Shown here one piece after another: positions 3,282-39,850 of a stretch of 64,000 nucleotides of DNA. The position numbers were made by a program, and so were the translations under genes. The DNA is from Candidatus Dormiibacterota bacterium (GTDB lineage Bacteria > Chloroflexota > Dormibacteria > Aeolococcales > Bog-877). The DNA is taken from NCBI GenBank assembly GCA_027313505.1, contig DAHVDN010000008.1:1-64000 (forward strand), given 5' to 3'. Each line of letters opens with the position of its first letter. Position 1 is the stretch's first letter. The notes below the pieces were generated by a model that had not been told where the DNA came from, did no database searches, and saw only the letters and a list, made by a program, of their open reading frames with translations.

Positions 3282-3331
3282 ACTAGCGAAAAGGCCGCAG
3301 TATCCACCCCAGCGCCTGCGACAATCGCGGC

Positions 3332-6930: not shown

Positions 6931-6940
6931 ACTCGACGAC

Positions 6941-8341
<1,401 letters not shown>

Positions 8342-8434
8342 AGGCGCCCCTGGTTCAGTCGCTCCAATCTCCGTTCCGAAGGGGTAGATGACCGGAGCCT
8401 TCTTTTGGGGCGCCAAGCCTTGGCCTGGGCGCGG

Positions 8435-11982: not shown

Positions 11983-13662
11983 ATGCCAAGACCGTCGGCG
12001 ACAGGTGGGTGGGACGGAGTTGTGCTTCCGTCCGCGGTGCTGGGCGCGGCCCTGGTCGCGATGGGGCTGACCCATCTGCTACGCCCCGGCGGGTCTCACC
12101 GCGGGGGAATCGGGGACAGCGGGGTCAGGCTCGCAGGTTCGGTCATGACTCAGGTCCCAGCCGTGGTCAGCTTGGGCATGGCATCGATCCTGCTCCTCAT
12201 GTTGACGGCTCTGGAACTGAAGAGCAAACGACTCCTTCGCCCTGGGGCCCTGGGCCGTGCCCGCCAAGCAACGCGCCGTGACCTGCGGGCATTTCGACCA
12301 CGGCGCCTGCATTCCCAGGAGCCGACCAGGCTGTTTCTGGGCACCCATGGCCGCACCCCGATTCAGCTTCCGGCCGAGGACCATCTCTTGGTACTGGGGC
12401 CAACCGGGTCCGGCAAGTCCAGCGGGTTGGCGATCCCGGCGATTCTGGAGTGGGCCGGGCCTGTGGTGGTGACCGACCCCAAGGGAGAGCTCCTGAGAGC
12501 CACTATCTCAGCCCGGTCCCAACTGGGGCCAGGAGCGGTATTCGCGCCACTGATGCGCCCGTCGGACCCGTGGAACCCCATTGCGTCAGTCCGGAGCTCC
12601 GAAGATGCGCTTCGGACATCCGGCTTCCTGATGGGTCGACCTCCTGAACGCGAACCCTTCTGGCACGACCTCGCTCTGCAGCTGTTGCATGGCCTTCTGG
12701 TAGAGGCTGCGACCCACCGGCTGACGCTGGCTGACCTGTTCGGCCTGCTCCAGACCGTACCTGGCGAAGAGCTGACATCTGAGATGGTGCATCCGGTCTC
12801 GAGAAGGTTGGTGCAGGGGGCATTGAGCGGTGGAGACCGGACGGCCATGGGTGTGGTCGCGACTTTGGTCGCGAAGCTGACGCCGTTCGGAACCGACACC
12901 ATCGCCGAGGCCACGTCCAGCAGCGCCTTCGATCCAGCCGGGCTGGCCGATGGGACGCTGAAGACTCTCTACTGCCTGGTGACCCCTCACGACGCACCGC
13001 TCGTTCGGGGCGTGACCAGTGCCCTCCTCGCCTGCTGCTGGCGAGCGCTCTACGCGGCCCCTCCTCGAGTACCGGTCCTCTTTGTCTTGGACGAGTTCGC
13101 CCAATTGACGCTGCTCTCCGAGCTCCCCGCGATGGTCCAGCTTGGACGATCTCAGGGAGTTCGCATGCTGCTGATGGCACAAGACCTTGCCTCGATCTCC
13201 TCCACGTACGGCGCAGAAGCCACGGCGGCGCTCTGGGCCAACTGCCGAACCAAACTGCTTCTCCCCGGCATCTCCGAGATCGAGCTGCTGGAGAAAGTGA
13301 GCAGGTTGGCTGGGTCGACCACACTCCATCGTTCAGACTCCGCAGAGCGCAAAGATCCGGTCGCGGCTCACCCGCTCCTGGCTGCTGACGAGGTGAGAAG
13401 GTTGGCAGACAACCGGGCACTGATCCTGCGCGGAAGCGATCAACCCGCAGTGATTCGCCAGCGCCGTTGGTACAACGTCCCTGCTCTGGCCAAACAGGTG
13501 GGCCTGCCACTAGAGGCGGCCTCCATCCCAAGACCGGCGGCGGGTAGGGCGCTCTCGCAATGGGGAGGGGGTGCTAAGCGTCTTCCGTGGTCGCAGGGGT
13601 CTGCAGACTTGGTGGGGGGCCCTGGGCAGCCGGTGGAGTGCACCACCAGAGTTTCAGCCTGA
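11983..13662 (+). CDS. Type IV coupling protein, VirD4/TraG family
   Basis: Two N-terminal TM segments; RLFLGTHGRTPIQLPAEDHLLVLGPTGSGKSSGLAIPAILEWAGPVVVTDPKGELLRAT; VPVLFVLDEFAQLTLLSELPAMVQLGRSQGVRMLLMAQDL. Confidence 0.93.
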   Translation: MPRPSATGGWDGVVLPSAVLGAALVAMGLTHLLRPGGSHRGGIGDSGVRLAGSVMTQVPAVVSLGMASILLLMLTALELKSKRLLRPGALGRARQATRRDLRAFRPRRLHSQEPTRLFLGTHGRTPIQLPAEDHLLVLGPTGSGKSSGLAIPAILEWAGPVVVTDPKGELLRATISARSQLGPGAVFAPLMRPSDPWNPIASVRSSEDALRTSGFLMGRPPEREPFWHDLALQLLHGLLVEAATHRLTLADLFGLLQTVPGEELTSEMVHPVSRRLVQGALSGGDRTAMGVVATLVAKLTPFGTDTIAEATSSSAFDPAGLADGTLKTLYCLVTPHDAPLVRGVTSALLACCWRALYAAPPRVPVLFVLDEFAQLTLLSELPAMVQLGRSQGVRMLLMAQDLASISSTYGAEATAALWANCRTKLLLPGISEIELLEKVSRLAGSTTLHRSDSAERKDPVAAHPLLAADEVRRLADNRALILRGSDQPAVIRQRRWYNVPALAKQVGLPLEAASIPRPAAGRALSQWGGGAKRLPWSQGSADLVGGPGQPVECTTRVSA

Positions 13663-13946
13663 TGGTCTGGGCAACCTTCGCCACCGGGCTGAACAACATC
13701 ATCCATACAGTCACAGCGCTGGCGCTGGGGGCTGTGGCTGTGCTCTGCCTCAGCTTTGCCGCGATCAGATACATGACCTCCCTTGACAACAGCCAGCGCC
13801 GGGCCGCGGCCATTCAGGGATTGATCACAGTCCTCTTAGGGGTGCTGCTGCTGGTCAACGAAGGGGCCATTCTCAGCTTCGTCGAGGGGCTTTCCGGCAG
13901 CAGCACGGCATGTGCCACCAGCAGCTGCTCATCGACCGCCCCCTGA
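13662..13946 (+). CDS. Small two-TM VirB2/TrbC pilin-like protein
   Basis: MVWATFATGLNNIIHTVTALALGAVAVLCLSFAAIRYMTSLDNSQRRAAAIQGLITVLLGVLLLVNEGAILSFV; TGATG overlap with the coupling-protein gene; position and topology match VirB2-like proteins. Confidence 0.65.
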   Translation: MVWATFATGLNNIIHTVTALALGAVAVLCLSFAAIRYMTSLDNSQRRAAAIQGLITVLLGVLLLVNEGAILSFVEGLSGSSTACATSSCSSTAP

Positions 13947-16114
13947 GCCAGGGTCCATCCGTTCGAAGCTGGGTGATCCTGGCATCGGCCGCGGCGTCAA
14001 TCGCTTGGACGACCGGCGCCGCCCGAGGGGTCGTTGCCGCGAGCACCGGGCAGGCCTCCTCGCCGAGCCCCCCCTCAGCTGCAGCGTCAGCAGGGGCGAG
14101 CAATTCCAGCCAGCAGTGCGGTGGAATCACCGACCCCTTCTGCTACATCATCGATGCCTTCATCTCTGGCCCGGTCGCCATCATGGGCAGCCTCGACGGC
14201 AGCCCCGATCCCTCAAGCATCAACCCTGTCACCGGAGCCGTCACCAAGGGTCCTTGGCGGTTGATTACGACACTGGTAGGCACCAACCCGGTGGTGGACA
14301 ACTACGACGGCAGCCTTGGAGAGCCAGGGCACCAATGCGGCGTCAGGGGCTGCATCCCCTGGGTGCAGCAATTGAACTCGATCTTGACTCCGCTGACGCT
14401 GAGCCTGCTGGTCTTGGCCTTCGCGGTTCAGGCGTCCCTATTTATGGTAGGGCAGGAGTTCAACCTCAAAGCGGGGATCGTGCCGTGCCTCGTGGCGGCT
14501 GGGGTCCTGGGAGCCGGCCTGCCCTTGCACCTGGCGGGCCGGGTCATCGACGCGGGCAGCTGGCTCTCACAGGGGCTCCTACAGACCTCGTTCCGCCAGC
14601 TGGGTGCCCACTCTCCGCAACCTCTCGACATGATGACGGTTCTGGCCATGACCGCCTACTGTCCGGAGGACAGCCCGATCCTGCACCCGGGAATCCACAT
14701 CTCGATGCCAGGGCCAGCACCGAGGCAACAGGTGCTCGTGGACCCTTGGATGGATCCACATTTCACGCAATCCCACTGCATAAGCTCAAACAGCGCTGAC
14801 TTCACCAAAGAGGTGCTCGACCGAAGTGAGAACTTCTTCGGGCCGCCATTGCATGACGCCAATTGCGATCGGGGAGGGCAAAGTCCCGGCCAGCCGCTCT
14901 GCACCAACACGGATAACCAGGTCAACAACAACCAGAACCAGGACTGCCTGGAAGGAAGTGGGAGCCCGGATATCGGTTCCGAGCAACTCAACTTGCTGCC
15001 GCTCCCTGGTGAGCCGCGCGCCGGTAACGGGCAGAGCCCAGCCGACTGTCGATACGCCGACATCTACTGGGGGACCTCGCCTACGTTCACCGACCTCTGG
15101 AGCGGGGTCGGCCCACATGGCCGAAACGGATACGACGCTCCTGATGGAATCCAGGGGATGGTGGCGTTCACTGCTCTGACCTTGCTGGGCCTATGGCTGG
15201 CCTTGACCTATCTCGCCCGCTACATCGTTCTCTCGCTCTTGGCGGGTTGCTCTAGCCTGGCGTTCCTGTTCCTGGCCCTTCCTGGCGGCCGGTCGCTCTT
15301 CAACCGCTACTGGCGGACTGTTGCGGAGCTCTCGGCGGTAGTGCTAGTCCAAACCCTCATCTTCCTGGTGTTTGTCGCTGTCGTCTCGACCGTCTCGGGG
15401 CTGGCCCCCCTTAGCCCAACCTCCACCTGCCCTCTGATCTCGCAAACTATGGCTCACAACTGCTCCGCCGCCACTCACGGCATCTTGGCCGAGGTCGGCA
15501 GCGGCGACCCGGGTGACCAGTTCGCCAAGTGTCTGCTGGCGATCGTGACTGTCTGGCTGATGCTTGAGGTCCCAAGACGAATAAGTCGCGGCGAGATGTC
15601 CACGTCTCACAGCGTGCGGACGCTGGTATCTGCTTCTGGCGGCCTCATGCTGGGTGGCGCTCTGCTAGCCCGGTCCCAGGTGTCCCCCAGAGCCGCCCGC
15701 TTCGGAGCCCAGTTCGGTCCGGTACTGAGATCGGCTGTCGGGCTTCCGACTGAAGCGGATCAACGCCGGGCCGAGATGCTGGAGACCATCGAGATGACCC
15801 AGCCCGCAAGCTGGCCCGCGCTGCCTGGCCGGGAGTCCAGGGAGCAGTTCATCGGTCGGGCCGTGGTGACAAGGCCAGCCAACGAGGACGAACTGGCGCG
15901 AGTGCTCAGTCTGGGAGGACCGATGCTGGCTCGGCTCCGCGCGCAGGCGAGAGCGGGTGAGGGAGGGGAGGAACTGACCCGCGTCGGTGGGGACTATGTT
16001 CGCGCTCACGGACGTTCAGTTCACCAGCTCGATGTCGCGTACCTCAATGCCGTTCGTCGAGGGCGCCTTCGACCTGAGCCGGGGTCGAGACCGGACTCTA
16101 GAGCTGATGGATGA
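13910..16114 (+). CDS. VirB6/TrbL-like polytopic T4SS channel protein
   Basis: 734 aa with several TM blocks (LTLSLLVLAFAVQASLFMVG, LLGLWLALTYLARYIVLSLLAG, VVLVQTLIFLVFVAVVSTVSGL) and a large Cys-containing soluble insert; lies between pilin-like and PrgI-like genes. Confidence 0.72.
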   Translation: MCHQQLLIDRPLSQGPSVRSWVILASAAASIAWTTGAARGVVAASTGQASSPSPPSAAASAGASNSSQQCGGITDPFCYIIDAFISGPVAIMGSLDGSPDPSSINPVTGAVTKGPWRLITTLVGTNPVVDNYDGSLGEPGHQCGVRGCIPWVQQLNSILTPLTLSLLVLAFAVQASLFMVGQEFNLKAGIVPCLVAAGVLGAGLPLHLAGRVIDAGSWLSQGLLQTSFRQLGAHSPQPLDMMTVLAMTAYCPEDSPILHPGIHISMPGPAPRQQVLVDPWMDPHFTQSHCISSNSADFTKEVLDRSENFFGPPLHDANCDRGGQSPGQPLCTNTDNQVNNNQNQDCLEGSGSPDIGSEQLNLLPLPGEPRAGNGQSPADCRYADIYWGTSPTFTDLWSGVGPHGRNGYDAPDGIQGMVAFTALTLLGLWLALTYLARYIVLSLLAGCSSLAFLFLALPGGRSLFNRYWRTVAELSAVVLVQTLIFLVFVAVVSTVSGLAPLSPTSTCPLISQTMAHNCSAATHGILAEVGSGDPGDQFAKCLLAIVTVWLMLEVPRRISRGEMSTSHSVRTLVSASGGLMLGGALLARSQVSPRAARFGAQFGPVLRSAVGLPTEADQRRAEMLETIEMTQPASWPALPGRESREQFIGRAVVTRPANEDELARVLSLGGPMLARLRAQARAGEGGEELTRVGGDYVRAHGRSVHQLDVAYLNAVRRGRLRPEPGSRPDSRADG

Positions 16115-16470
16115 CGCAAGCTGAAGTTCCGCAGCCGATCTCCGCGATCCCTGCGCGCTGGGGACGGTTCACGGCTGCCCAACTGGGCTGGATGGTGATA
16201 GCGGTCTGCCCCCTGTACCTCTCGATCCGCGGCCATCTCCCGGCCCTGCCGATGCTCCTCGCCACTTCTCCGTGGATAACAACCGCCACCGCAATGGCAT
16301 TCGGCCGACTTCAGGGTCGGCGACTGGACGCCTTCACCGCCGACTGGGTGTTGTACCGGTTGCAAAGTAAGCGCCTCGACCACCCGGACTCCGGACAAAA
16401 CATCTCGGACCGCAGTTTTGTGGTTGTGGATCGGGCCCGGTGTCGTCCAATCCCCTGGGATCGGTCATGA
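16111..16470 (+). CDS. PrgI/VirB3-like membrane protein
   Basis: VPQPISAIPARWGRFTAAQLGWMVIAVCPLYL and RRLDAFTADWVLYRLQSKRL match PrgI layout; directly upstream of virB4-like gene. Confidence 0.72.
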   Translation: MTQAEVPQPISAIPARWGRFTAAQLGWMVIAVCPLYLSIRGHLPALPMLLATSPWITTATAMAFGRLQGRRLDAFTADWVLYRLQSKRLDHPDSGQNISDRSFVVVDRARCRPIPWDRS

Positions 16471-18743
16471 GATCAGTCTCCGAGTCCAGGAGATCGACAG
16501 CTAGCCTCGTGGACGTCATCTCTATTGATGGAGGGGTGGCAACCCTGCGATCTGGGGAGCTGCGCGCGGCCGTCGAAATTGACCCGGTCAACCTGGCGCT
16601 CCAACCTGAGAGCGTGAAGACCGACATATGGCGAAAGTATCGCCAGGTGCTGGTTGGCTTGGGCGGACCTGTGTCCCTTCACACAATCTCCCAGCCCCTG
16701 ACCACCACGGGGCGCCCACCCGCCACGACTGGGGCCCTGGCCGAGACTGAGGTCGAATTTCGATCCAGCCTGGTCCAGGGCAGGCGCATCCAATCGCAGC
16801 GACATTTGGCAGTCGTTTGGGGCCCGGGCGAAACTCCTGGAAGAGGCCGGATGGAGCGTCTGGGGTTGCGCGGGACTGGCGCATACCGTCCGGCAACAGT
16901 GAGCCTCGAGCACCGGTGCCAGGCGCTCATCGGAGGACTCGCAAGAGTTGGGCTGTCGTCCCGGCGGCTGGATGACGGCGCCTGGTTTTCAATCCTGCAG
17001 AGCTGCACGGGAGGGCGCAGTGGTCGGATGCCTCCTGACTTCCCAAGTTGGCTCGCACCGGGACACGTGGTCCTTAGACCCCAAGTACTTGAGGTCGACC
17101 GGCACTTCTGTAAGACCTTGGTCATTGCTGGGCTGCCGCGGCGGTTGACAACCGGTTGGCTGGCACCGCTTGTACTGACGCCTCCCTGCACACTCCGCCT
17201 GGTCCAGCACATCCATCCGGTCGGCAAGCTCGCCAGCCTTGCGCACCTGCGTCGTCGCATCCGCACCTTTGAGACCAGCCTCCAGGTCGATCGTCTGCGC
17301 GGCCAGCGCCCAGATCGCGGGACGGAGGCGGCGCTGGGAGACGCCATGGAACTGGAGGAGCGCGTGCTTCTCGAAGAGGAGCGGTTGTTCCGTCTGGGGA
17401 TCGCGGTCACCCTCGAATCCGATTCGCGGACTGAGTTGGAGGACAGCTGGAATCAGATCCTGGCGACTTTGGCGGAGATGGGAAGTGGAGTAACGCCGCT
17501 GACTCACCGACAGCCCGATGGATGGAGGACGACGCTCCCCGCCGGCGTCGATCCGGTGGGGTGGAGCCGGGACATGACGGGAAGCGCCCTGGCCACCTGC
17601 CTTCCGTTCATTCGCGCCGGCTTGTCCGGGAGCGACGGCGTCCTCCTGGGACCGAGCCTGGTATCCCGCGAGTTGATATTGGTGGACCTGTTCTCCGCCC
17701 AGAATCCAAACTTCAACCTGATTGTCCTCGGCACTTCCGGCGCCGGGAAGTCCTTCACGGCCAAGTTGCTGACCGCTCGGCTGGCACTTCAGGGTGCTCG
17801 CGTGCGCTGCCTGGACCCGGCGGGCGAATACCAGGCCATCACCTCCCTGCTGCGGGGGCGGTCAACGCTCCTGGGTAGACGGCCGCGGTCTGGGCTGAAT
17901 GCCATGGGCCCACCCTGCGGCCCGGCTCCGCAGATGGCCGAGCTCCGCGCCGCATTGGTGCTTCCGGTCATCGAGAAATTGGTCGTGGGCCCGAGGACCC
18001 GCGGGGTACTCCCAGATGCCGATGCTGAGCGGTTAGAGAGAGCGGTGGTGCGGGTCATCGGACAGGACCCCGAACGATGCGACCTTAACGACCTGGTCGG
18101 AGAGCTTGAGCGAGCAGGAGACCAGCAGATCGCCGCCAGGCTCAGCCGCTTCACAACGGGCGTAGACCTCGGCTTCTTCGATGGCGGTCCCTCGGTGGGA
18201 CAACCTCAGGTCGCCACCATCTCGCTCCGGAACCTTCAACGAGATCGCGAGCACCTTTTGGCGGCGCTGATGCAGCTGGTCTTGGTCCACCTAGAGGCGG
18301 AGCTGGCGGCCGCAGCTGGCGTGCCCCACCTCCTCGTGGTTGACGAGGCTGAGGTCCTCTTGGCCTCAGCCGCAGCGGCAACCGCGCTCGAGAGACTCAC
18401 GCGACGGCTGCGAAAGTTGGGCGCCGGGTTGATGGTGATCTCCCAAGTGGTGGAAGACTTCCTCACCTCCCCGGTCGGCAACGTGATCATCCGCAACTGC
18501 CATACCAAGGTGCTGCTTCGCCAGGAGGCTGTGGCGATCCCGGCAGTTCAGAAGGCCTTTGACCTTTCGGAGGTTGAGTGCGAGCTGCTGGTGTCGGCTC
18601 AGCCCGGGTGTGGTCTCATCCTGGTCGGACGAGAGCGGGCGGCCTTCTCCGGCGCCGCGCCACCCGAGTGGTTGGGGGCTCTGGGGACCAGCGCGCTAGG
18701 CCCGGAACAGCCCTCGGCGAACGGTACTGCGACGGCCCGCTGA
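16467..18743 (+). CDS. VirB4/TraE-like T4SS ATPase
   Basis: NLIVLGTSGAGKSFTAKLLTARLALQGARVRCLDPAGEYQAI (Walker A), HLLVVDEAEVLLAS (Walker B); N-terminus IDGGVATLRSGELRAAVEIDPVNLALQPESVK typical of VirB4 partners of PrgI. ATGA overlap with the PrgI-like gene. Confidence 0.92.
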   Translation: MRSVSESRRSTASLVDVISIDGGVATLRSGELRAAVEIDPVNLALQPESVKTDIWRKYRQVLVGLGGPVSLHTISQPLTTTGRPPATTGALAETEVEFRSSLVQGRRIQSQRHLAVVWGPGETPGRGRMERLGLRGTGAYRPATVSLEHRCQALIGGLARVGLSSRRLDDGAWFSILQSCTGGRSGRMPPDFPSWLAPGHVVLRPQVLEVDRHFCKTLVIAGLPRRLTTGWLAPLVLTPPCTLRLVQHIHPVGKLASLAHLRRRIRTFETSLQVDRLRGQRPDRGTEAALGDAMELEERVLLEEERLFRLGIAVTLESDSRTELEDSWNQILATLAEMGSGVTPLTHRQPDGWRTTLPAGVDPVGWSRDMTGSALATCLPFIRAGLSGSDGVLLGPSLVSRELILVDLFSAQNPNFNLIVLGTSGAGKSFTAKLLTARLALQGARVRCLDPAGEYQAITSLLRGRSTLLGRRPRSGLNAMGPPCGPAPQMAELRAALVLPVIEKLVVGPRTRGVLPDADAERLERAVVRVIGQDPERCDLNDLVGELERAGDQQIAARLSRFTTGVDLGFFDGGPSVGQPQVATISLRNLQRDREHLLAALMQLVLVHLEAELAAAAGVPHLLVVDEAEVLLASAAAATALERLTRRLRKLGAGLMVISQVVEDFLTSPVGNVIIRNCHTKVLLRQEAVAIPAVQKAFDLSEVECELLVSAQPGCGLILVGRERAAFSGAAPPEWLGALGTSALGPEQPSANGTATAR

Positions 18744-18745
18744 GG

Positions 18746-19411
18746 GTGTTCAGATCCCTGGCAACCCTGATGGTGGCCGGTTGCGCCCTGCCACTAATCG
18801 TCACCCTCTCCTTGGTGGGGATGTTGGCGGCGGGAGCGGCCGCCGCGGGGTGGCCGGCGTTCGGGGGTTTGCTACCCAGCCCGGGAGGCATCGTGCTTCA
18901 GGTCGGACAGACAGTCCTGGCTGGCAGCGCGAGCTTTCCGATCTGGGCCGCCCCTTGCGGTCCGGAGCCAGGAGCGCTGGCAATGGACCCATCGTCATGC
19001 ACCGGGCACCCGAGTCCTTACCCCTTCGCCTACCAGGGGTTCGAGACCGGACAGTGCACCTGGTATGTCGCCACCAGGCGACTGATCACCTGGCGGACGC
19101 CCCAGGGCTCGCTGGGCGGGAACGCGGGACAGTGGCTGGAGCTGGCGGCCCAAGCCGGGTATGCGGTGGGACCCGCGCCAGAGGTCGGGGCGATCGCTGT
19201 GTACACGGACTCAGGACCCGGTCATGTGGCCTTTGTCGTGGGGGTCGCGGCTGATGGAGACTACACCGTGGCGGAGTCGAACTGGGCCCTATCCGGGCCT
19301 ATCTCACCATACGTCGACCTGCGTGGCGTTGGTGCCGGGTCCACCGGGTCTTCAAGGGAGGTGCTGGCGGGGTTCATCTACGCTCCGGCTGGGTCTCCCG
19401 CCACGGGGTAG
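18746..19411 (+). CDS. CHAP-domain peptidoglycan hydrolase with N-terminal TM/signal (VirB1-like role)
   Basis: FETGQCTWYVATRRLITW...GNAGQWLELAAQAGYAVGPAPEVGAIAVYTDSGPGHVAFVVGV; immediately follows virB4-like gene. GTG 18746 likely start. Confidence 0.85.
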   Translation: MFRSLATLMVAGCALPLIVTLSLVGMLAAGAAAAGWPAFGGLLPSPGGIVLQVGQTVLAGSASFPIWAAPCGPEPGALAMDPSSCTGHPSPYPFAYQGFETGQCTWYVATRRLITWRTPQGSLGGNAGQWLELAAQAGYAVGPAPEVGAIAVYTDSGPGHVAFVVGVAADGDYTVAESNWALSGPISPYVDLRGVGAGSTGSSREVLAGFIYAPAGSPATG

Positions 19412-29682: not shown

Positions 29683-30078
29683 GTGAGTGAGAATGTGATA
29701 GAGGGCTCAGAGCCGCCGACTTCTGTCCGGGGTCGTCTGCTCCTGCACGGACTGCGCTTTTTTGGCCACCACGGTTGTCGCGCTGAGGAACGCACGCTGG
29801 GCTCCCACTTCGTAGTGGATGTGGAGCTCAGAACCGATATCGGATCCGCGGCGGCCTCAGACCAACTCGATTCAACGGTCAACTACTCGGAGGTCTATCG
29901 CCAGGTCCGCACCCTAACGGAAGAGACGGCGTTCAACCTTCTGGAGACGCTGGCCACCCGGATTGCCCAGACCCTGCTGCGAATGTCGGGGGTTCTTGAG
30001 GTGACCGTCAGAGTGACCAAGCAGCCAAGACTTCCGGGCCAAACGGCCGGCTTCGCGGTAGAGGTGACGTTGTCCTAG
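29683..30078 (+). CDS. folB: Dihydroneopterin aldolase
   Basis: LHGLRFFGHHGCRAEERTLGSHFVVDVELRTDI... TVNYSEVYRQV... FNLLETLATRIA. Confidence 0.94.
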   Translation: MSENVIEGSEPPTSVRGRLLLHGLRFFGHHGCRAEERTLGSHFVVDVELRTDIGSAAASDQLDSTVNYSEVYRQVRTLTEETAFNLLETLATRIAQTLLRMSGVLEVTVRVTKQPRLPGQTAGFAVEVTLS

Positions 30079-31271: not shown

Positions 31272-33008
31272 GTGGCCCTGATCCGGATGATGCGCGAGCG
31301 CCTGGCTCGATACCGGGGTCCGGTGGCGTTGGTGGTGGTACTCACGGCGCTCCAGACCGCGGTCGGGCTGTACCTTCCCAATCTCACCGCAAACATCATC
31401 AACGACGGCATCGCCAAGGGCAATATCAGCTACATCTGGGATACCGGTGGACTGATGCTCGGGCTGACCCTCGTCCAAGGCGTGGTCGCCGTAGTCGCCG
31501 TGTTTTGGGCCTCGAGGATCTCGATGGGGGTGGGCCGCGATCTCCGTGACGCCATCTTTCGTCGGGTCCTGCTGTTCTCAGCTCGAGAGATGAATCACTT
31601 CGGGACGCCCTCGCTGATCACCCGCAACACCAATGACGTGCAACAGATCCAGCTATTTCTACAGATGGCCCTGACCATCATGGTGGGGGCCCCGATCATG
31701 ATGGTTGGGGGCATCATCATGGCGCTCACCGAAGACGCGACCCTCTCTTTGCTGCTGGTGGTCGCGGTCCCTCTGATGGCCATCGTAGTCGGGACGATGC
31801 TTTTTGTGGCCGTCCCTCAGTTCCAGGCCATGCAGGTCAAGATCGACCGGATCAACCAGGTGCTGCGCGAGCAGATCACCGGGGTACGTGTGATCCGGGC
31901 TTTCGTCCGATCCGGATATGAGACCGACCGCTTCGCGGTGGCCAACGCCAACCTCACCCACACCGGCCTGAGAGTCAACCGGATCTTCGTGCTCGCCTTT
32001 CCCACCTTGATGGGGATCATGAACCTCACCAGCGTGGCCGTGCTCTGGTTCGGTGGGGGATTGATTGGCCGGGGACAAATGCCCATCGGGAACATGACCG
32101 CTTTCCTGGCTTACATCCTGCAGATCCTGATGTCAGTCCTGATGGCGGTGATGATGGTGATCCTGGTCCCCCGAGCCGAGGCCAGTGCGGAACGGGTTAA
32201 CGCAGTGATCGCCACGGTGCCAGCTATCGCCTCCCCACCCGACCCCGCGTCCCCGCCCGCCTCCTCGGGCCGCATTGAACTGCGCAACGTGGGCTTCGCC
32301 TACCCCGGGGGGGAGCATCCGGTGCTGGAGGGGCTTTCGTTCGAACTCATGCCCGGTCAGACCAGCGCCATCATCGGTGGCACTGGGGTTGGCAAGACCA
32401 CCCTTCTGGGTCTGATCATGCGTTCCTTCGATGTCACCTCCGGCGGGTTGCTGGTCGACGGCGTGGACGTCCGCGAGTGGGCGCTGGACGACCTTTGGGC
32501 CCAGATCGGGCTGGTGCCCCAGCAGGCGTACCTCTTCAGTGGAACCGTGGGTGACAACCTTCGGTTTGGCAGGGACGGCGCCTCGGACGCCGAGCTGTGG
32601 CACGCCCTAGAGGTGGCCCAAGCCAGCGACTTCGTGGCCGCCATGGGGGGGCAGCTGGAGGCCACCATCGATCAGGGCGGGACCAATGTCTCTGGAGGTC
32701 AGCGCCAGCGGCTCTCGATCGCCCGAGCTCTGGTGAAGCAACCGCGGATCTACCTCTTCGACGACTGCTTCTCGGCTCTCGACGCGGCCACCGACGCCCG
32801 GCTGCGAGCGGCGCTGAAAGCCGAGACCCGCCAGAGCAGCGTGGTCATCGTGGCCCAGAGGGTGAGCACCATCCTCAGCGCTGAACAGATCATAGTTCTC
32901 GACGGGGGAAGGGTGGTGGGCAGCGGCACCCACGCGGAGCTTTTGACCAGCTGCACCGCTTACCGGGAGATCGTGGCGTCCCAGCTGGGAGAGGAGGCGG
33001 CCGCATGA
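31272..33008 (+). CDS. ABC exporter half-transporter (heterodimer subunit 1, degenerate ATPase site)
   Basis: TM domain + GGTGVGKTTLL Walker A, NVSGGQRQRLSIARAL signature, IYLFDDCFSALD Walker B, AQRVSTI in place of AHR H-loop. Confidence 0.95.
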   Translation: MALIRMMRERLARYRGPVALVVVLTALQTAVGLYLPNLTANIINDGIAKGNISYIWDTGGLMLGLTLVQGVVAVVAVFWASRISMGVGRDLRDAIFRRVLLFSAREMNHFGTPSLITRNTNDVQQIQLFLQMALTIMVGAPIMMVGGIIMALTEDATLSLLLVVAVPLMAIVVGTMLFVAVPQFQAMQVKIDRINQVLREQITGVRVIRAFVRSGYETDRFAVANANLTHTGLRVNRIFVLAFPTLMGIMNLTSVAVLWFGGGLIGRGQMPIGNMTAFLAYILQILMSVLMAVMMVILVPRAEASAERVNAVIATVPAIASPPDPASPPASSGRIELRNVGFAYPGGEHPVLEGLSFELMPGQTSAIIGGTGVGKTTLLGLIMRSFDVTSGGLLVDGVDVREWALDDLWAQIGLVPQQAYLFSGTVGDNLRFGRDGASDAELWHALEVAQASDFVAAMGGQLEATIDQGGTNVSGGQRQRLSIARALVKQPRIYLFDDCFSALDAATDARLRAALKAETRQSSVVIVAQRVSTILSAEQIIVLDGGRVVGSGTHAELLTSCTAYREIVASQLGEEAAA

Positions 33009-34945
33009 TGCGGGGGCCGGGGGCCGGTCCCCGAGTGGGACCAGGCGGTGGCATTTCGCCACCGCAGGCGGCCAAGGATCTCCGCGCCACCCTGCGCCAA
33101 CTGGTAGGACGACTTCGTCCCGAATGGGGCGCCATCGTTGCCTCGGTATTGCTGGCTGCCACCGGAATCGCTCTGGTTGTGATCGCTCCTCGCATCATCG
33201 GGACCGCCACCAATGTGATATTCAACGGGGTGCTGGGCAAGACCCTCCCCGCCGGACTGACCAAGGCTCAGGCGGTGGCGTACCTGCGCGCCCACGGGGA
33301 GGGACAGGTGGCCCAGCTTGTCTCCGGGAGCGGTGTGGTGCCGGGCAAAGGCATTGACCTAACCCGGTTGGGCGAGCTGCTGGGCGTGGTCGCCCTGCTC
33401 TACCTAGTGGGCGCGGTTTTCTCCTGGATGCAGGGCTTCATCATGGCCGGGGTCGCCCAGCGCACCGTCCAGCGCATGCGCCGGGACGTGGAGGACAAGC
33501 TCTCCCGGTTGCCTTTGCGCTACTTCGACAGCCATCCGCATGGCGATGTTCTGAGCCGGGTCACCAATGACATAGACAACATCACCACCACCATCCAGCA
33601 GGGCCTCAGCCAGCTACTCACCTCGCTGCTGACCATCATCGGAGTCCTCGCCATGATGCTGCTGCTGAGCCCGGTTCTGGCGGTCATTTCGTTGATCACG
33701 GTGCCGCTGTCGATGGGGGTGACCTTGCTGGTGGCGCGCCGATCTCAGGTCCAGTTCGGGGCCCAGTGGCAGCGCACGGGGTCGGTGAATTCCCTAGTCG
33801 AGCAGACCCACACTGGGCACGCTCTGGTTCAGGTCTACGGCCGCAGCCGCAAGGTCATGGAGGACTTCGAGAAGGAGAACCAGGGTCTTTACGAACCCAG
33901 CTTCCGGGCCCAGTTCCTTTCCGGAATCATCCAGCCGGCGATGCTCTTCTTGGCCAACCTCAACTACGTGGCGATCGCCGCGCTGGGAGGCTATTGGGTG
34001 GTGTCCGGGTCCATGACCCTGGGCGACATCCAGGCGTTCATCCAGTACTCCCGCCAGTTCACCAATCCAATCACCCAGATCGCCAGCCAGATGAACATGT
34101 TGCAGTCCGGGCTGGCTTCGGCGGAGCGTGTCTTCGAGTTCCTCGGCTCCGAGGAGGAGGCGCCAGACCTGGCACAGTCGGTCGTGGCGCCGGCGCCGAT
34201 CGGGCACGTCCTGCTCGACCACGTCTACTTCAGCTATCAGCCGGACCGACCCCTGATCGAAGGCTTCACCCTGGAGGTAGAGCCCGGGCAGACGGTCGCC
34301 ATCGTGGGCCCGACCGGAGCAGGGAAGACCACGGTGGTCAACCTTCTGATGCGCTTCTACGAGATCGACTCCGGCCACATCTACCTGGATGGGGTCGACT
34401 CCCAGCAGCTCACCAGGGAAGAGGTTCGCAGCCGCTTTGGCATGGTGCTTCAGGACACCTGGCTATTCGCAGGCAGCATTCTAGACAACATCGCCTACGG
34501 CAAGGTGGGAGCCGACCCCGAGGATGTGCTCCGGGCGGCCCAGGCCGCCTTTGTGGACCAGTTCGTGCGCACCCTGCCGGAGGGCTACGAAACTCTCCTG
34601 GACGGGGACGCGTCCAACATCTCTTCGGGCCAGCGCCAGCTGCTCACGATCGCCAGGGCATTCCTGGCCGACCCCGCGATTCTGATCCTGGACGAGGCCA
34701 CCAGCAATGTCGACACCCGCACCGAGGTCCTGATCCAAGAGGCGATGGCCCGCCTGCGCCACGGTAGGACCAGCTTCGTGATCGCCCATCGGCTCTCCAC
34801 CATCCGCAACGCCGACTCGATCGTGGTCATGGACCAGGGCAGGATCATCGAGCAGGGTAGCCATCCCCAGCTGATGGAGCGCCGGGGCTTCTATTACGAC
34901 CTGTACCAGAGTCAATTCACAGCTGCACTGGACGTGGCCAGCTAG
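33005..34945 (+). CDS. ABC exporter half-transporter (heterodimer subunit 2)
   Basis: GPTGAGKTTVVN, NISSGQRQLLTIARAF, ILILDEATSNVD, IAHRLSTI; ATGA overlap with subunit 1. Confidence 0.95.
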   Translation: MMRGPGAGPRVGPGGGISPPQAAKDLRATLRQLVGRLRPEWGAIVASVLLAATGIALVVIAPRIIGTATNVIFNGVLGKTLPAGLTKAQAVAYLRAHGEGQVAQLVSGSGVVPGKGIDLTRLGELLGVVALLYLVGAVFSWMQGFIMAGVAQRTVQRMRRDVEDKLSRLPLRYFDSHPHGDVLSRVTNDIDNITTTIQQGLSQLLTSLLTIIGVLAMMLLLSPVLAVISLITVPLSMGVTLLVARRSQVQFGAQWQRTGSVNSLVEQTHTGHALVQVYGRSRKVMEDFEKENQGLYEPSFRAQFLSGIIQPAMLFLANLNYVAIAALGGYWVVSGSMTLGDIQAFIQYSRQFTNPITQIASQMNMLQSGLASAERVFEFLGSEEEAPDLAQSVVAPAPIGHVLLDHVYFSYQPDRPLIEGFTLEVEPGQTVAIVGPTGAGKTTVVNLLMRFYEIDSGHIYLDGVDSQQLTREEVRSRFGMVLQDTWLFAGSILDNIAYGKVGADPEDVLRAAQAAFVDQFVRTLPEGYETLLDGDASNISSGQRQLLTIARAFLADPAILILDEATSNVDTRTEVLIQEAMARLRHGRTSFVIAHRLSTIRNADSIVVMDQGRIIEQGSHPQLMERRGFYYDLYQSQFTAALDVAS

Positions 34946-35199: not shown

Positions 35200-35547
35200 A
35201 TGAAACCGCTTCCGAGGCCACCTTTGACCACGGTCAAATTCACCGATCTCCCCCCGCGAGACGAGGTCCTGGCGCTGGGCCTTCCGGCACCGCGACTGGC
35301 CCTGGTGCTCGGAGGGTTGGTCGGCACGGTCTCTGTCCTCCATCTCGCCTGGCCAGAGCCGTTGCGGCTGAGCGCGACCGGCGGCTTGGACGGGCTGGTG
35401 GCAGCTCTGGCCTGGGTGCAGTTCGGGGGTCTGCCGTTGAGCGCCTGGGCGTTGAGGGTCATAGGTCTTTGGCGGCGGCGATGTAGCTGCGCAAGGGGAC
35501 CCGAGCACACCTGGTCTCCCATCGATGGGATCACGGAGCCGAATTGA
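35200..35547 (+). CDS. PrgI/VirB3-like small membrane protein (T4SS locus B)
   Basis: Two TM segments; GLPLSAWALRVIGLWRRR resembles PrgI C-terminal layout; overlaps start of second VirB4-like gene. Confidence 0.58.
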   Translation: MKPLPRPPLTTVKFTDLPPRDEVLALGLPAPRLALVLGGLVGTVSVLHLAWPEPLRLSATGGLDGLVAALAWVQFGGLPLSAWALRVIGLWRRRCSCARGPEHTWSPIDGITEPN

Positions 35548-37547
35548 ATAAGACGATCTGGCGCACCGTCGGGCCGGACCTGCTGGACCTGGAGTGGAGG
35601 GAGCGGAGTCGCCTCACCAATGGCTTTTCGGCCTGGCTTGACGAACTGACCACCGGGGTGACCTTCGTGGTGTGCTCGCGTCCAGTTCCGGTCCCTGCTC
35701 CTCAAGGAAGTTCAACCCTTGACCAAGCGCGCCACGATCATGTCGCGTCCAAGCTGAAGGGTAACGCTGCATTCCAGCGGGTCACTCACCTGGTGGTCCC
35801 GTACCTGGCCCCGGAGGCCGCCCTCTCCCTGGTCGCATCGCTCAGGGGCACTTGCGACGTCGAGAGCGAACTGGTGGAGATTCTCCCACCTCTGGCCGAG
35901 GGAACGTGGGCCGAAAAGCCCCGCACCATCAAGGTCGGTGGCCTATGGCTCTCGTCGGTGAGGCTCGAGCGGCCTCCGGCGGTGGCGGTCGAACCGGGAT
36001 GGCTCTCTACATTGACTGGTATCGGCGCCGCCTACGACCTTGCCGTCCGGATTGTGCCGAGAGCAGCAGAGACGGCTGACCGCGGGCTGCGCAGACGCCT
36101 ACGCAATCTTAGGGCGCAGGAGCTGGCCATCTCCACTCTCCGCGGTGACCCGAGGGTGGACGTGGCGATGGCGGCTACCCAGCGCCTCCGACATCTGCTT
36201 GCTACCAGGAAGGGCAATCTGTTTGAGATTGGCGCGACCATGACCCTTGTAGCTCGATCTGAAGTGGAGGCTGCCGCCCTGGTCAAAGAGGCTCGTGGCC
36301 GGGGCGCGCTACTGCATTCGCGGTGGGCTCCCACATGGCTGGACGAGGTACCAGCTCGCCTGGAGACGCTCGCCCACCCCAACCAGCTTGTCGCCTCTCG
36401 GCTTCTGGTTCAGACGGTGGAGTTGGCCACCATGTGGCCGTGGAGCACGATCTGGGAGTATCCACCGGAAAATCGGAGCCTGCTGGGCCGACACCAGCGG
36501 ACCGGAGATTGGGTCACCGTGGATCCGCAATCCGATGCAGACCTTCCCAACGGCAACCTGGCAGTCGTTGCCGCATCTGGTGGGGGCAAATCGTTCCTAG
36601 GTGGGCTCCTCGGGATCGAGGCCGTTCGACGCGGCCAGTCGGTGGTGGTGCTGGATCCCGAAAACGAGCACCGCCGGTGGTGCGCGGCGGTTGGCGGTAC
36701 CTATGTCGACCTGGCTGTCGGCGACGGCCCGGGATTCAACATCCTGGAGCTGGGTTCGTACCAGGAATCGGTGATGGGTGCTGTTGAACTGTTGGGGCTG
36801 CTGGTGGGAACCCTAACTGGTGGCGAGAAGGCTTCCTTTCTCGAAGCGCTGGAACAGTCGCGGAAGCGCCAGCCCGACACCCGCCCGTTGCTGGGTGACT
36901 GCGTCGACCTTCTGATGACGTCTGGGCGCGCTCAGGCACTGGGACGACGACTATCGCCGTGGATCACCGGAGACCCCGGGCTCCTGTTCAACCGGCGGGG
37001 AAGTGGTCCTGAGGTACGCCCGCTGGTCTGCATTGGCGTTCGAGACCTTCCCTCGGAGTGGGTGCCCGCGGCCACCCTTCTCATCTCCTGTTGGCTTTGG
37101 GACTGGATACGCAGGCACAACGGGCCGAAGTTGGTGATGGTGGACGAGGCCGGATTGCTGGCCGACAATGCCCATCTTCGACGACTTATGGCGCACCTCT
37201 CAAGGCGGATTCGCAAGTACCGGGGGGCGCTATTGCTCCTGACCCAAACCGGCGCCGACCTGACGCAGACCGAATTCGGAGAGGTGGTGGCGGTCAACTC
37301 CGCCACGCTGCTGCTCGGAGGCCAGAATCAGGCTGGTGCCCGGCGCCTGCAGGAGGCTGTGAGCCTCGACAACCCATACAGTAAGTGGCTTCAGGAAGTC
37401 GGCCGGGGAAGCTTTTTGTTGGTCTCTGGACCCAGACGGATCCCGGTGGTGGTGGAAGCTCCCGGGTTGTACCGGGAGTGGCTCGGAGGCGACTCAGGGG
37501 CGGGCGAGGCGCGTTCTCTGGAGGGTCCTCTCGCCGGGCATGGCTAA
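35544..37547 (+). CDS. VirB4/TraC-like T4SS ATPase, second copy
   Basis: GNLAVVAASGGGKSFLGGLLGIEAVRRGQSVVVLDPENEHRRWCAAVGG; KLVMVDEAGLLADN; LTQTGADLTQTEFGEVVAVNSATLLLGGQ. Confidence 0.9.
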   Translation: MNKTIWRTVGPDLLDLEWRERSRLTNGFSAWLDELTTGVTFVVCSRPVPVPAPQGSSTLDQARHDHVASKLKGNAAFQRVTHLVVPYLAPEAALSLVASLRGTCDVESELVEILPPLAEGTWAEKPRTIKVGGLWLSSVRLERPPAVAVEPGWLSTLTGIGAAYDLAVRIVPRAAETADRGLRRRLRNLRAQELAISTLRGDPRVDVAMAATQRLRHLLATRKGNLFEIGATMTLVARSEVEAAALVKEARGRGALLHSRWAPTWLDEVPARLETLAHPNQLVASRLLVQTVELATMWPWSTIWEYPPENRSLLGRHQRTGDWVTVDPQSDADLPNGNLAVVAASGGGKSFLGGLLGIEAVRRGQSVVVLDPENEHRRWCAAVGGTYVDLAVGDGPGFNILELGSYQESVMGAVELLGLLVGTLTGGEKASFLEALEQSRKRQPDTRPLLGDCVDLLMTSGRAQALGRRLSPWITGDPGLLFNRRGSGPEVRPLVCIGVRDLPSEWVPAATLLISCWLWDWIRRHNGPKLVMVDEAGLLADNAHLRRLMAHLSRRIRKYRGALLLLTQTGADLTQTEFGEVVAVNSATLLLGGQNQAGARRLQEAVSLDNPYSKWLQEVGRGSFLLVSGPRRIPVVVEAPGLYREWLGGDSGAGEARSLEGPLAGHG

Positions 37548-38154
37548 AATCAGGAAGATGGGTCGGGTCATCTACTACCGTCTTCTCAATCTCGGTCACG
37601 GCGATGCGGAGGCCTGGGAGCAGATGGTGTCCCGCCTGGCGGCCGCCCGGGAGTGGCGCTCCGAGCCGATGTGGTTGGCGACCGACAGCTCGCGGGGGGT
37701 CTTCGAGTCGGAGTACCTGCGGCACCTGCGGCTGGACAGGCGGGAGCAGGTGCTTGGCGCTGGATTCGTACGGCTGGCGGGCGACGAGACCGACGCGCTG
37801 GCTGTCTCCTACGGCCTTCTCCAGGCCTGCTTTGAGCTCGGGGGGAAGGTGGTGTTGGAGGATCCTGACAACCCGATTGGAAAGCAGCGCCAGCTTGAGA
37901 TGATTGAAGGCAGCGTGACCGGTCCCCGGTCGATCGATGACCTCATGGTGTCTGGGCCGATCTTCAAGCGACTCCCGTTAGCGACGATCACCTTCTATCC
38001 ACCGCGCTATCACAGCCGAACCATGCCCGGTCCCGCAGGGCCTCCCGGCTGGTGGAGCTTCGCCATACAGGGGATGAGGGCTCAGGCGCAGGGCTTCCTC
38101 GAAGCCGAGGCCGAGGCGATGCGGATCTATCGGGGCCTGCGGGCCATCGGCTGA
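37540..38154 (+). CDS. Hypothetical protein in T4SS locus B
   Basis: 204 aa ORF overlapping virB4-like stop by 8 nt; strand and spacing consistent with an operon. Confidence 0.65.
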   Translation: MAKIRKMGRVIYYRLLNLGHGDAEAWEQMVSRLAAAREWRSEPMWLATDSSRGVFESEYLRHLRLDRREQVLGAGFVRLAGDETDALAVSYGLLQACFELGGKVVLEDPDNPIGKQRQLEMIEGSVTGPRSIDDLMVSGPIFKRLPLATITFYPPRYHSRTMPGPAGPPGWWSFAIQGMRAQAQGFLEAEAEAMRIYRGLRAIG

Positions 38155-38158
38155 CGCC

Positions 38159-38629
38159 TTGAGGGCAGTTGTCCAACGGGTGAGCCGCGCGCGCGTGACT
38201 GACTCAGAAGGTCTGATCGCTGAGATCGGCCAAGGGCTGCTTATCTATCTAGGCATTGGCCCAGCTGACGATGAGGCTGCCGCCTACCACCTGGCAGGGC
38301 GGTTGGCCAACATGCGCATCTTCTCGGACTCCGTGGGACGGATGAACCGCTCTCTCCTCGATGTCTCGGCGGCCGCGCTGGTGGTGAGTCAGTTCACCCT
38401 GTTCGCTGACCTATCCCATGGGCACAGACCGTCGTTCAGCGCTGCCGGGGGACCGGAACGTGCCCGCGAGCTCTGCTCGCTGACCGTCTCGGCGCTGCGC
38501 CTGGCCGGGGTCAACCAGGTGTCGGAGGGCCGCTTCGGTAGCCACATGCAGGTGGAATCGAACAACGATGGGCCGGTGACCATCGTCGTCAGCAGCGCAG
38601 AGGGTCCCTGGCAGGCCAACTGCGGCTGA
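38159..38629 (+). CDS. dtd: D-aminoacyl-tRNA deacylase
   Basis: MRAVVQRVSRARVTDSEGLIAEIGQGLLIYLGI, SQFTLFADLSHGHRPSF, GRFGSHMQVESNNDGPVTIVV. Confidence 0.95.
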   Translation: MRAVVQRVSRARVTDSEGLIAEIGQGLLIYLGIGPADDEAAAYHLAGRLANMRIFSDSVGRMNRSLLDVSAAALVVSQFTLFADLSHGHRPSFSAAGGPERARELCSLTVSALRLAGVNQVSEGRFGSHMQVESNNDGPVTIVVSSAEGPWQANCG

Positions 38630-38693
38630 CCCTCCCTCTACGATCCCGCTGAGCGGACCTAGAGGGGTGTGACCGAACACCGGGGGGCGGATC

Positions 38694-38933
38694 GTGGCTG
38701 AGTTGAATTCCCTGCTGAACTCGTGGGTTCTGTTGGCACAGGGGCTTATCGGAAGCTTGGGCACCCTGGCTTTCGCCTGCGCTTTTGTCTGGAGGGTCGT
38801 AGCCCCGAGCCCGCACAGCGCGATGGAAGCCCAGCGCTGGCTGGGACGCATCGCAATTGGTACGTTGGGCGTGGAACTTGCGGGGGTGCTGACCCACGTT
38901 CTGCTGTCCGCGGTCCCGCACAGCCTTGGCTGA
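38694..38933 (+). CDS. Small two-TM VirB2/TrbC pilin-like protein (locus B)
   Basis: AQGLIGSLGTLAFACAFVWRVVAP and LGRIAIGTLGVELAGVLTHVLLSAV; directly upstream of VirB6-like gene. Confidence 0.58.
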   Translation: MAELNSLLNSWVLLAQGLIGSLGTLAFACAFVWRVVAPSPHSAMEAQRWLGRIAIGTLGVELAGVLTHVLLSAVPHSLG

Positions 38934-38935
38934 CA

Positions 38936-39850
38936 ATGACCCCGGTCGCGCTTCTGACGCTTCCTCCTTTCACCCTCAATCCGCTCTCACTTCTGAACGG
39001 CCTTCTGAGCTCGGCGCTGAGTCAGTTTGTGGCCAGCGCCCGAACCGCCCTCGACTCCGACCTTCAGCGCTACCTGTTCTCGACCCACGATGTGTCAGGA
39101 GCTGGTGGTGGAGAGCAGTTTGTGAACACCCCTGGGCTGGTCTCGCTGAATCACCTGCTGGGCCTAGCTACGGGGGCGTTGCTGGTGGCGATCCTGCTAT
39201 ACAGCGGCTTGCGAACCGTAACCGACGCCGGTGGTGAGAGGCGCCATCAGCTACAGGTGGTGCTGCCTCGGGCGATGGCGGCGCTCGCGCTGGGGGTGTT
39301 CAGCCTGCCCCTCATCCAGCAGCTGATTGACCTAAACAACGCACTCTGTCAGGTGGTGGTGGGAGGGGCCGCGGTGAGCCTCAGCGACCTTCCGTGGAGC
39401 AGCCCCCTGAGCGGGCCAGCGATCGCCTCCGCCTCGAACAACATCTTCCTGCTGCTTTTCGCAGCGGCACTGGTGTTGGCGGTCGTCATTCTCGCGCTGG
39501 CCTATGTGGTTCGCTACACCCTACTTGCGGTGCTCTGCGCCTCGGCACCCCTCGCCGCGGCAGCTTGGATTCTTCCTGAGACAAGAGGATTCGCCCGCCA
39601 GTGGGGGCGGCTTCTAATCGTCTCGCTCTTCATGCAGTTCGTGCAACTCGTGGTCCTGCGAGTCGCGGTGGCGCTGGCCTTCGCCCGTGGGCAGGGGGTC
39701 GGGGGCATGCTGTTCGCCTTCGCCAGCCTGTACCTGATGCTGCGGGTGCCCGGGGCGATGAACGTGGCCGCTCATTACCAGACCAGCGCGGAGTCAGCGG
39801 GTCGTCGCTGGAGTCGTGCCGTACGCAAGCTCGCCGCGACCGAGGTCTGA
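38936..39850 (+). CDS. VirB6/TrbL-like T4SS channel protein (locus B)
   Basis: ~5-6 TM, LALAYVVRYTLLAVLCASAPLAAAAWILPETRGFARQWGRLLIVSLFMQFVQLVVLRVAVAL; ATG 38936 right after pilin-like stop. Confidence 0.75.
   Translation: MTPVALLTLPPFTLNPLSLLNGLLSSALSQFVASARTALDSDLQRYLFSTHDVSGAGGGEQFVNTPGLVSLNHLLGLATGALLVAILLYSGLRTVTDAGGERRHQLQVVLPRAMAALALGVFSLPLIQQLIDLNNALCQVVVGGAAVSLSDLPWSSPLSGPAIASASNNIFLLLFAAALVLAVVILALAYVVRYTLLAVLCASAPLAAAAWILPETRGFARQWGRLLIVSLFMQFVQLVVLRVAVALAFARGQGVGGMLFAFASLYLMLRVPGAMNVAAHYQTSAESAGRRWSRAVRKLAATEV

What the first reader, a model, noticed from the sequence alone, without database searches (positions are those of the whole stretch)
35200..39850. Second VirB4/VirB6 module is a divergent paralogous set, not a fragment
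The two VirB4-like ATPases (759 and 667 aa) both keep Walker A (GTSGAGKS / AASGGGKS) and Walker B (VVDEAEVLL / MVDEAGLLA) but look strongly divergent elsewhere. Each is preceded by a small two-TM PrgI-like protein, and each locus has a small two-TM protein before a VirB6-like protein. This suggests either two machines or a hetero-ATPase machine.
Basis: partly seen in the sequence, partly recalled or inferred. Interest (0 to 1): 0.62.

Follow-up and report, generated by a model that had tools for sequence, protein, structure and literature searches.

The report
VirB4 motor inherited from Tad-pilus operon
The second VirB4 locus is real and intact, but it is not a duplicate of the first: it is an older secretion motor found across the whole bacterial class, which relatives keep inside a Tad-pilus operon with its membrane anchor fused to the pilus-positioning protein TadZ, whereas the first locus is a separate, complete transporter found only in this family.

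Summary
Locus B (35224-39850) encodes a PrgI-like protein, an intact VirB4, a two-TM VirB2-like protein and a TrbL/VirB6-like protein, plus two non-T4SS genes. Locus A (12022-19411) is a complete minimal monoderm T4SS: VirD4, pilin, VirB6, PrgI, VirB4, CHAP. VirB4b is a true VirB4 by profile and by predicted fold, not HerA/FtsK.

A and B are two old lineages, not a duplicated set. VirB4b forms one clade across all four class families sampled (match in 89/101 genomes), often without a VirD4. The VirB4a lineage is confined to the window's family (15/16 genomes).

New result: in sister families and basal genera of the window's own family, the PrgI before VirB4b is fused to the Tad protein TadZ. 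In about ten genomes of two families VirB4b is the last gene of a Tad operon, and one genome has lost Tad and VirB4b together. The window carries a TadZ-stripped descendant beside VirB2b/VirB6b, which elsewhere sit with an M23 hydrolase and a dedicated SSB. ComEC is undetected in all 18 family genomes. Function (VirD4-independent, possibly DNA handling) is inference.

The parts
35224..35547 (+). PrgIb (VirB3-like), 107 aa, two hydrophobic segments; TadZ-less form of the PrgI-TadZ fusion found in relatives; overlaps the VirB4b start by 4 bp
35544..37547 (+). VirB4b ATPase, 667 aa, Walker A AASGGGKS, Walker B MVDEAGLLA; class-wide lineage
37540..38154 (+). conserved unknown protein (204 aa), 85/101 class genomes, linked to VirB4b in families f1, f3 (several) and f4; overlaps the VirB4b stop by 8 bp; no Pfam or PDB match
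38159..38629 (+). D-Tyr-tRNA(Tyr) deacylase, housekeeping gene, a synteny anchor of the locus
38694..38933 (+). VirB2-like small two-TM protein (B2b, 79 aa), 85-95% identical within the family
38936..39850 (+). VirB6b / TrbL_4 polytopic membrane protein, 304 aa; homologues in 90/101 class genomes
29815..30078 (+). FolB (dihydroneopterin aldolase), flanking synteny anchor in several relatives
12022..13662 (+). locus A: VirD4a coupling protein
13638..13946 (+). locus A: VirB2-like pilin (T4SS_pilin), two TM
13910..16114 (+). locus A: large VirB6-like protein (734 aa), matches VirB6b by profile only over about 66 columns
16111..16470 (+). locus A: PrgIa (VirB3-like)
16440..18743 (+). locus A: VirB4a ATPase, Walker A GTSGAGKS, Walker B VVDEAEVLL; lineage confined to the window's family
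18746..19411 (+). locus A: CHAP hydrolase (VirB1-like role inferred)

Best explanation
Locus A and locus B are two separate machines of different age. Locus B carries the PrgI/VirB4 motor of an old, chromosomal, vertically inherited system of this bacterial class that does not need a VirD4 coupling protein. In ancestral form (inferred) the motor belonged to a Tad (Flp, type IVc) pilus operon: the PrgI membrane anchor is fused to the positioning ATPase TadZ and VirB4 is the last gene after TadA-B-C, Flp, TadE, CpaB. A TadZ-fused anchor would hold the VirB4 hexamer at the pilus base (inferred). In the window's genus and its close relatives the Tad genes and TadZ domain are gone, and PrgI-VirB4 now stands beside VirB2b and VirB6b, which in other families lie elsewhere with an M23 wall hydrolase and a dedicated SSB. 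Most likely working form in the window (inferred): PrgIb anchors a VirB4b homohexamer that drives a VirB2b/VirB6b channel or short pilus, independent of VirD4, with DNA handling as the most likely cargo role. Locus A is a family-specific complete minimal monoderm T4SS with its own VirD4, pilin, VirB6, PrgI, VirB4 and CHAP hydrolase. Shown: gene content, separate lineages, distribution, vertical inheritance, PrgI-TadZ fusions, Tad-VirB4 operons and one case of joint loss. Inferred: direction of change, homohexamer, tethering, substrate.
For: VirB4 identity: A1 profile hits VirB4 4ag5 at 3.5e-54 and TrwK at 3.6e-22, HerA-type helicase only 0.003; AlphaFold model (pLDDT 89) matches R388 TrwK/VirB4 first (E 7e-28, TM 0.69), HerA far lower. 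Two lineages: VirB4b from families f1-f4 is one clade (SH-aLRT 100) ordered ((f3,f4),(f1,f2)); family f1 VirB4a is another clade (100); both show the same main sub-groups inside f1. Distribution: VirB4b match in 89/101 class genomes; VirB4a at high score only in f1, 15/16; VirD4 undetected in many VirB4b genomes, only 15 of 37 high-quality genomes positive. Both loci syntenic in f1 among housekeeping genes. Tad origin: PrgI-MinD fusion, T2SSE, T2SSF, TadE and RcpC domains by Pfam; VirB4b directly after CpaB in about ten genomes of f2 and f3; in f3 genomes L224 and L225 the operon runs on to the 37540-type gene and DTD, the order of window locus B; basal f1 genomes G279, G309 and G281 still have a PrgI-TadZ or TadZ reading frame upstream of VirB4b. 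Co-loss in f3: G017, G183, G255, G273 lack both; G017 keeps the flanking 68-aa gene at 97% identity with neither gene beside it; exceptions G199, G256, G254, G270 lie at contig ends. VirB2b-VirB6b-M23-SSB gene group recurs in f2, f3, f4, its SSB being a second copy in most genomes; basal f1 G279 still has SSB beside VirB6b.
Against: Five f4 genomes (G036, G071, G111, G282, G298) have no TadA at E<1e-30 yet keep VirB4b and VirB6b, so Tad is dispensable. Most f2 genomes keep only the PrgI-TadZ/VirB4b pair. VirB6b persists in genomes without VirB4b (G017, G271), so the two halves are not strictly co-dependent. Gain of Tad by transfer into f2 and f3 is not excluded; no separate Tad-gene tree was built. 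The cargo is not shown; SSB and M23 are no longer beside VirB6b in the window.
Confidence: 0.7

Rival explanations
1. Two fully independent T4SSs that merely coexist; the Tad neighbourhood in f2/f3 is coincidental co-location and PrgI-TadZ is a chance fusion.
For: Locus A has a complete set of its own; VirB4b and VirB6b persist in genomes without any TadA.
Against: The fusion is seen in three families including basal f1; the same gene order recurs in f2 and f3; Tad and VirB4b are lost together in G017.
Confidence: 0.17
2. Hetero-ATPase: VirB4a and VirB4b form mixed hexamers in one machine.
For: The two co-occur in 15 of 16 f1 genomes, both vertical.
Against: VirB4b occurs across the class without VirB4a; each has its own PrgI partner next door; 26% identity; the lineages are old and separate.
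Confidence: 0.05
3. Locus B is a decaying remnant of a lost Tad-linked or conjugative system in the window's lineage.
For: TadZ and Tad genes are gone; VirB4b and PrgIb are the least conserved genes of the locus (32-48%).
Against: Open frames, intact Walker motifs and conserved VirB4 motifs in the aligned relatives, compact gene spacing, VirB2b 85-95% and VirB6b 65-71% identical, VirB4b present in all 16 f1 genomes sampled.
Confidence: 0.06
4. Locus A or B is part of an integrative conjugative element.
For: VirD4, VirB4, VirB6, PrgI and CHAP are a conjugation-type gene set.
Against: Fixed place among housekeeping genes across the family; no mobile-element gene among the window proteins scanned (not every gene was scanned); no VirD4 detected in many genomes that carry B.
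Confidence: 0.04

Closest known systems
Monoderm (MPF-FATA type) minimal T4SS, e.g. pCF10 Prg and Tn916
   Same: PrgI directly before VirB4, VirB6-like, CHAP hydrolase, VirD4 in locus A; PrgI overlapping the VirB4 gene as described for pCF10 (PMC12857230)
   Different: Chromosomal and vertical, no relaxase seen; locus B lacks VirD4, hydrolase and an identified VirB8
Chromosomal relaxase-less T4SS of Patescibacteria (PMC12102498)
   Same: Chromosomal, non-conjugative, VirB4 with VirB2-like pilins, VirD4 rarely adjacent
   Different: No Tad linkage or PrgI-TadZ fusion in the passages read; here the system is in another lineage
Tad/Flp (type IVc) pilus
   Same: TadZ, TadA, TadB, TadC, Flp, TadE, CpaB in the orthologous locus of f3 and part of f2
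   Different: An additional VirB4 and a PrgI domain fused to TadZ; all Tad genes absent from the window locus
Micrococcus luteus Flp-pilus-dependent transformation (PMC4322843)
   Same: Tad genes used for DNA uptake
   Different: No VirB4 mentioned; ComEC essential there, whereas ComEC is undetected in the window's family
Cutibacterium acnes linear plasmid (PMC5696575)
   Same: tad locus and a VirB4-family ATPase on one replicon
   Different: There VirB4 lies in a separate conjugation locus upstream of tad, not as a gene of the tad operon
Helicobacter ComB DNA-uptake T4SS (own knowledge)
   Same: T4SS parts working without VirD4
   Different: Diderm system with VirB7-10; no homologues of those were found here

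Membership tests
VirB4 ATPase | VirB4 C-terminal RecA domain with Walker A/B and VirB4-specific motifs | tested here: met
   (4ag5 3.5e-54)
VirB4 ATPase | VirB4 N-terminal domain (TrwK-like) rather than HerA/FtsK | tested here: met
   TrwK full-length best fold match, HerA much lower
Complete (conjugative) T4SS, locus B | VirD4 coupling protein encoded with the system | tested here: not met
   none in locus B; none detected in many VirB4b genomes
Complete minimal T4SS, locus A | VirD4, VirB2, VirB3/PrgI, VirB4, VirB6, hydrolase | tested here: met
   a VirB8 was not identified
Integrative conjugative element | relaxase, integrase, sporadic distribution | tested here: inconclusive
   distribution is vertical and syntenic; no relaxase or integrase among proteins scanned, but the window was not scanned in full
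Tad pilus system, orthologous loci in f2/f3 | TadZ, TadA, TadB, TadC, Flp, TadE, CpaB in one operon | tested here: met
   (TadB and Flp by position and similarity, not by a Pfam hit)
Tad pilus system, window locus B | same gene set | tested here: not met
   only PrgIb and VirB4b remain; the genome has a separate ordinary Tad locus on C166
Natural competence system | ComEC channel in the genome | tested here: not met
   0 of 18 family genomes; 41 of 50 sampled genomes of other families
Heteromeric VirB4a/VirB4b ATPase | obligate co-occurrence | tested here: not met
Heteromeric VirB4a/VirB4b ATPase | mixed hexamer interface | not testable with these tools
   no multimer prediction available; needs AlphaFold-Multimer or co-purification

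The most novel reading that the evidence does not exclude
This bacterial class has a hybrid nanomachine in which a T4SS VirB3/VirB4 motor is physically tied to a Tad pilus through a PrgI-TadZ fusion and works with a VirB2/VirB6 channel and a dedicated SSB on single-stranded DNA; the window's family has stripped off the pilus, consolidated motor and channel, and uses this T4SS-type route in place of the ComEC channel it lacks.
Probability: 0.12. Interest if true: 0.85.

Novelty: new variant of a known kind. Interest (0 to 1): 0.6.

Why it matters
VirB4 is used as the signature of type IV secretion, and Tad pili are normally thought to run on one ATPase, TadA/CpaF. A vertically kept VirB4 at the end of a Tad operon, with its VirB3-like anchor fused to the Tad positioning protein, links the two machine families in one gene product and gives a testable physical tether. 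It also warns against calling chromosomal VirB4 loci conjugative or duplicated. Two intact VirB4 machines in a family with no detectable ComEC raise a concrete question about how these bacteria move DNA.

Tried and rejected
Duplication of A into B: rejected by the VirB4 tree and unequal partner proteins. HerA/FtsK identity for VirB4b: rejected. Hetero-ATPase: disfavoured by distribution. Mobile element: disfavoured by synteny. VirB2a/VirB2b homology: no profile support, each tied to T4SS_pilin separately and weakly. Fold search with the unknown protein 37540-38154: good model (pLDDT 87) but no PDB match below E 0.001. Literature: papers with VirB4 plus Tad or Flp pilus terms were listed and two were read in passages; none seen describes VirB4 as a Tad-operon gene, and a search for Dormibacter with Tad pili gave none. 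Only open-licence papers are held, so this is not proof of absence. An attempt to align VirB4a orthologues by rough coordinates failed and was not repeated.
Full report
OBSERVATION. VirB4a lies at 16440-18743 and VirB4b at 35544-37547, both on +, with the stated Walker A and B motifs. They are 26% identical over 482 residues. A PrgI-like gene precedes each, and a small protein with two hydrophobic stretches precedes each VirB6-like gene. Genes were called with a simple codon-score script, so start codons are approximate. Locus B is compact: PrgIb and VirB4b overlap by 4 bp, VirB4b and the next gene by 8 bp, VirB2b and VirB6b are 2 bp apart. Between VirB4b and VirB2b lie an unknown protein and a D-Tyr-tRNA deacylase (DTD). 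Locus A adds VirD4 and a CHAP hydrolase; locus B has neither.

WHAT VirB4b IS. A profile of 25 class-wide orthologues hits the solved VirB4 of Thermoanaerobacter (4ag5) at 3.5e-54 and TrwK at 3.6e-22, while a HerA-type helicase scores only 0.003. The AlphaFold model (mean pLDDT 89) matches full-length R388 TrwK/VirB4 first (E 7e-28, TM-score 0.69), ahead of HerA.

ORIGIN AND DISTRIBUTION. The window lies in a MAG of 3.18 Mb; the nearest named relatives are Candidatus Dormiibacterota MAGs. Within the class, genomes fall into four family groups (f1 = window's family). VirB4b gives a match in 89 of 101 genomes; a minority of those matches (for instance G063, G275, G297, G311, G251) are weak and are probably other VirB4s. 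The high-scoring VirB4a lineage is confined to f1, 15 of 16; the missing one, G239, is an 84% complete MAG. VirD4a orthologues are likewise f1-specific, and many VirB4b genomes have no VirD4 match. In a 77-protein tree VirB4b of f1-f4 is one clade with the order ((f3,f4),(f1,f2)), and f1 VirB4a is a separate clade (quick method, SH-aLRT only). The main sub-groups inside f1 agree between the A and B clades. Both loci sit between the same housekeeping genes across f1. So B is old and vertical, A is younger or retained only in f1, and neither is a copy of the other.

THE TAD CONNECTION. In f2, the PrgI gene before VirB4b continues into a MinD/TadZ-type ATPase; Pfam finds CbiA and PrgI domains in one protein (the PrgI hits, E 0.002-0.004, are below Pfam's cut-off, and rest on the alignment as well). 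In f3 and in some f2 genomes (G045, G231) the locus is PrgI-TadZ, TadA, TadB, TadC, Flp, TadE, TadG-like, (PKD protein), CpaB, VirB4b (in G231 some of these genes were not called cleanly). In f3 genomes G253 and G252 it continues to the 37540-type gene and DTD, the same order as window locus B, with FolB nearby in G253. In basal f1 genomes G279 and G309 the PrgI is still fused to a TadZ domain (396 and 393 aa; the G309 copy has no Pfam hit and an altered P-loop), and in G281 a TadZ reading frame precedes VirB4b. The window and its close relatives have PrgI alone (94-127 aa). By parsimony the fusion was ancestral and TadZ was lost in the window's line; transfer remains possible.

CO-LOSS. In f3, nine genomes have both the Tad-type TadA and VirB4b (G103, G167, G191, G252, G253, G258, G261, G264, G267). 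G017, G183, G255 and G273 have neither; G251 lacks the TadA and has only a different VirB4. G199, G256, G254 and G270 have one of the two, and in each the contig ends inside or beside the operon. G017 keeps the 68-aa gene that normally follows VirB4b (97% identical) with no VirB4b or TadA within the 17 kb fetched. These counts are not phylogenetically independent. Against a general need for Tad: five f4 genomes have VirB4b and VirB6b without any TadA.

THE CHANNEL HALF. VirB6b homologues occur in 90 of 101 genomes, outside f1 mostly away from VirB4b, in a recurring gene group VirB2b, VirB6b, M23 peptidase, SSB. Most genomes carry this SSB in addition to another one. In f1, VirB2b-VirB6b stand beside the VirB4b locus; basal f1 G279 still has an SSB next to VirB6b. 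VirB6b persists in some genomes without VirB4b (G017, G271), so the halves can be separated.

ComEC. PF03772 is detected in 41 of 50 sampled genomes of other families and in none of the window's family: 0 of 11 and 0 of 18. MAG incompleteness cannot easily explain 0 of 18, seven of them high quality. This is a correlation only.

MECHANISM. Most likely, PrgIb anchors a VirB4b homohexamer that energises a VirB2b/VirB6b channel or short pilus without a coupling protein; in Tad-type relatives TadZ would place this motor at the pilus base. DNA handling is suggested by the SSB and wall-hydrolase neighbours and by Tad-dependent transformation in Micrococcus luteus (PMC4322843), but is not shown. Locus A is a second, complete, VirD4-equipped minimal T4SS.

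AN ODDITY. In both loci the ATPase and its PrgI are the least conserved parts (VirB4a 48-58%, VirB4b 42-48%, PrgIa 38-45%, PrgIb 32-35%), while the VirB2-like proteins (80-95%) are the most conserved and the VirB6 proteins reach 65-71%. I have no tested explanation.

KNOWN WORK. A 2025 study describes relaxase-less chromosomal T4SS in Patescibacteria (PMC12102498). A 2025 review gives PrgI as the VirB3 of monoderm systems, next to VirB4 (PMC12857230). Denise et al. use VirB4 as an outgroup of the type IV filament ATPases and describe TadZ as a recruiting hub at the pole (PMC6668835). The C. acnes plasmid has tad and VirB4 in separate loci (PMC5696575). No paper seen here describes VirB4 as a Tad-operon gene or a PrgI-TadZ fusion; the search covered open-licence papers only.

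Noticed in passing
window family f1 (18 genomes): ComEC (PF03772) is undetected in all 18 genomes of the family, while 41 of 50 sampled genomes of other families in the class have it.
   Followed up: partly
L114 (G004:C45) 2539-8827 and L113 (G063:C54): A further T4SS with a split VirB4 (PrgI plus N-terminal part about 495 aa, ATPase part about 420-434 aa), its own VirB6-like and pilin-like genes; in G004 it lies beside VirB6b, VirB2b, M23 and SSB.
   Followed up: no
window 37540-38154: Unknown 204-aa protein, in 85/101 class genomes, confident AlphaFold model without a PDB match; separate from VirB4b in f2 but beside DTD there in two genomes checked.
   Followed up: partly
window 23887-25414: A CHAP protein with a long helical-looking N-terminal part and an SLT lytic transglycosylase lie between the two loci; possible wall hydrolases for either machine.
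   Followed up: no
window 31272-34945: Two ABC exporters stand between FolB and PrgIb in the window; they are absent at this place in the other f1 loci examined.
   Followed up: no
L239 (G000:C166:22000-36000): The window's own genome has a separate ordinary Tad locus (CpaB, CpaE-like, TadA, TadB, TadC and a second TadA-like).
   Followed up: no
window loci A and B: VirB4 and PrgI are the fastest-changing parts while the VirB2-like proteins are the most conserved, in both loci.
   Followed up: partly
L101 5584-9936: The ribonucleotide-reductase-like protein next to VirB4b in G223 is 1450 aa against 939 aa in L078, with an apparent insert (possibly an intein).
   Followed up: no
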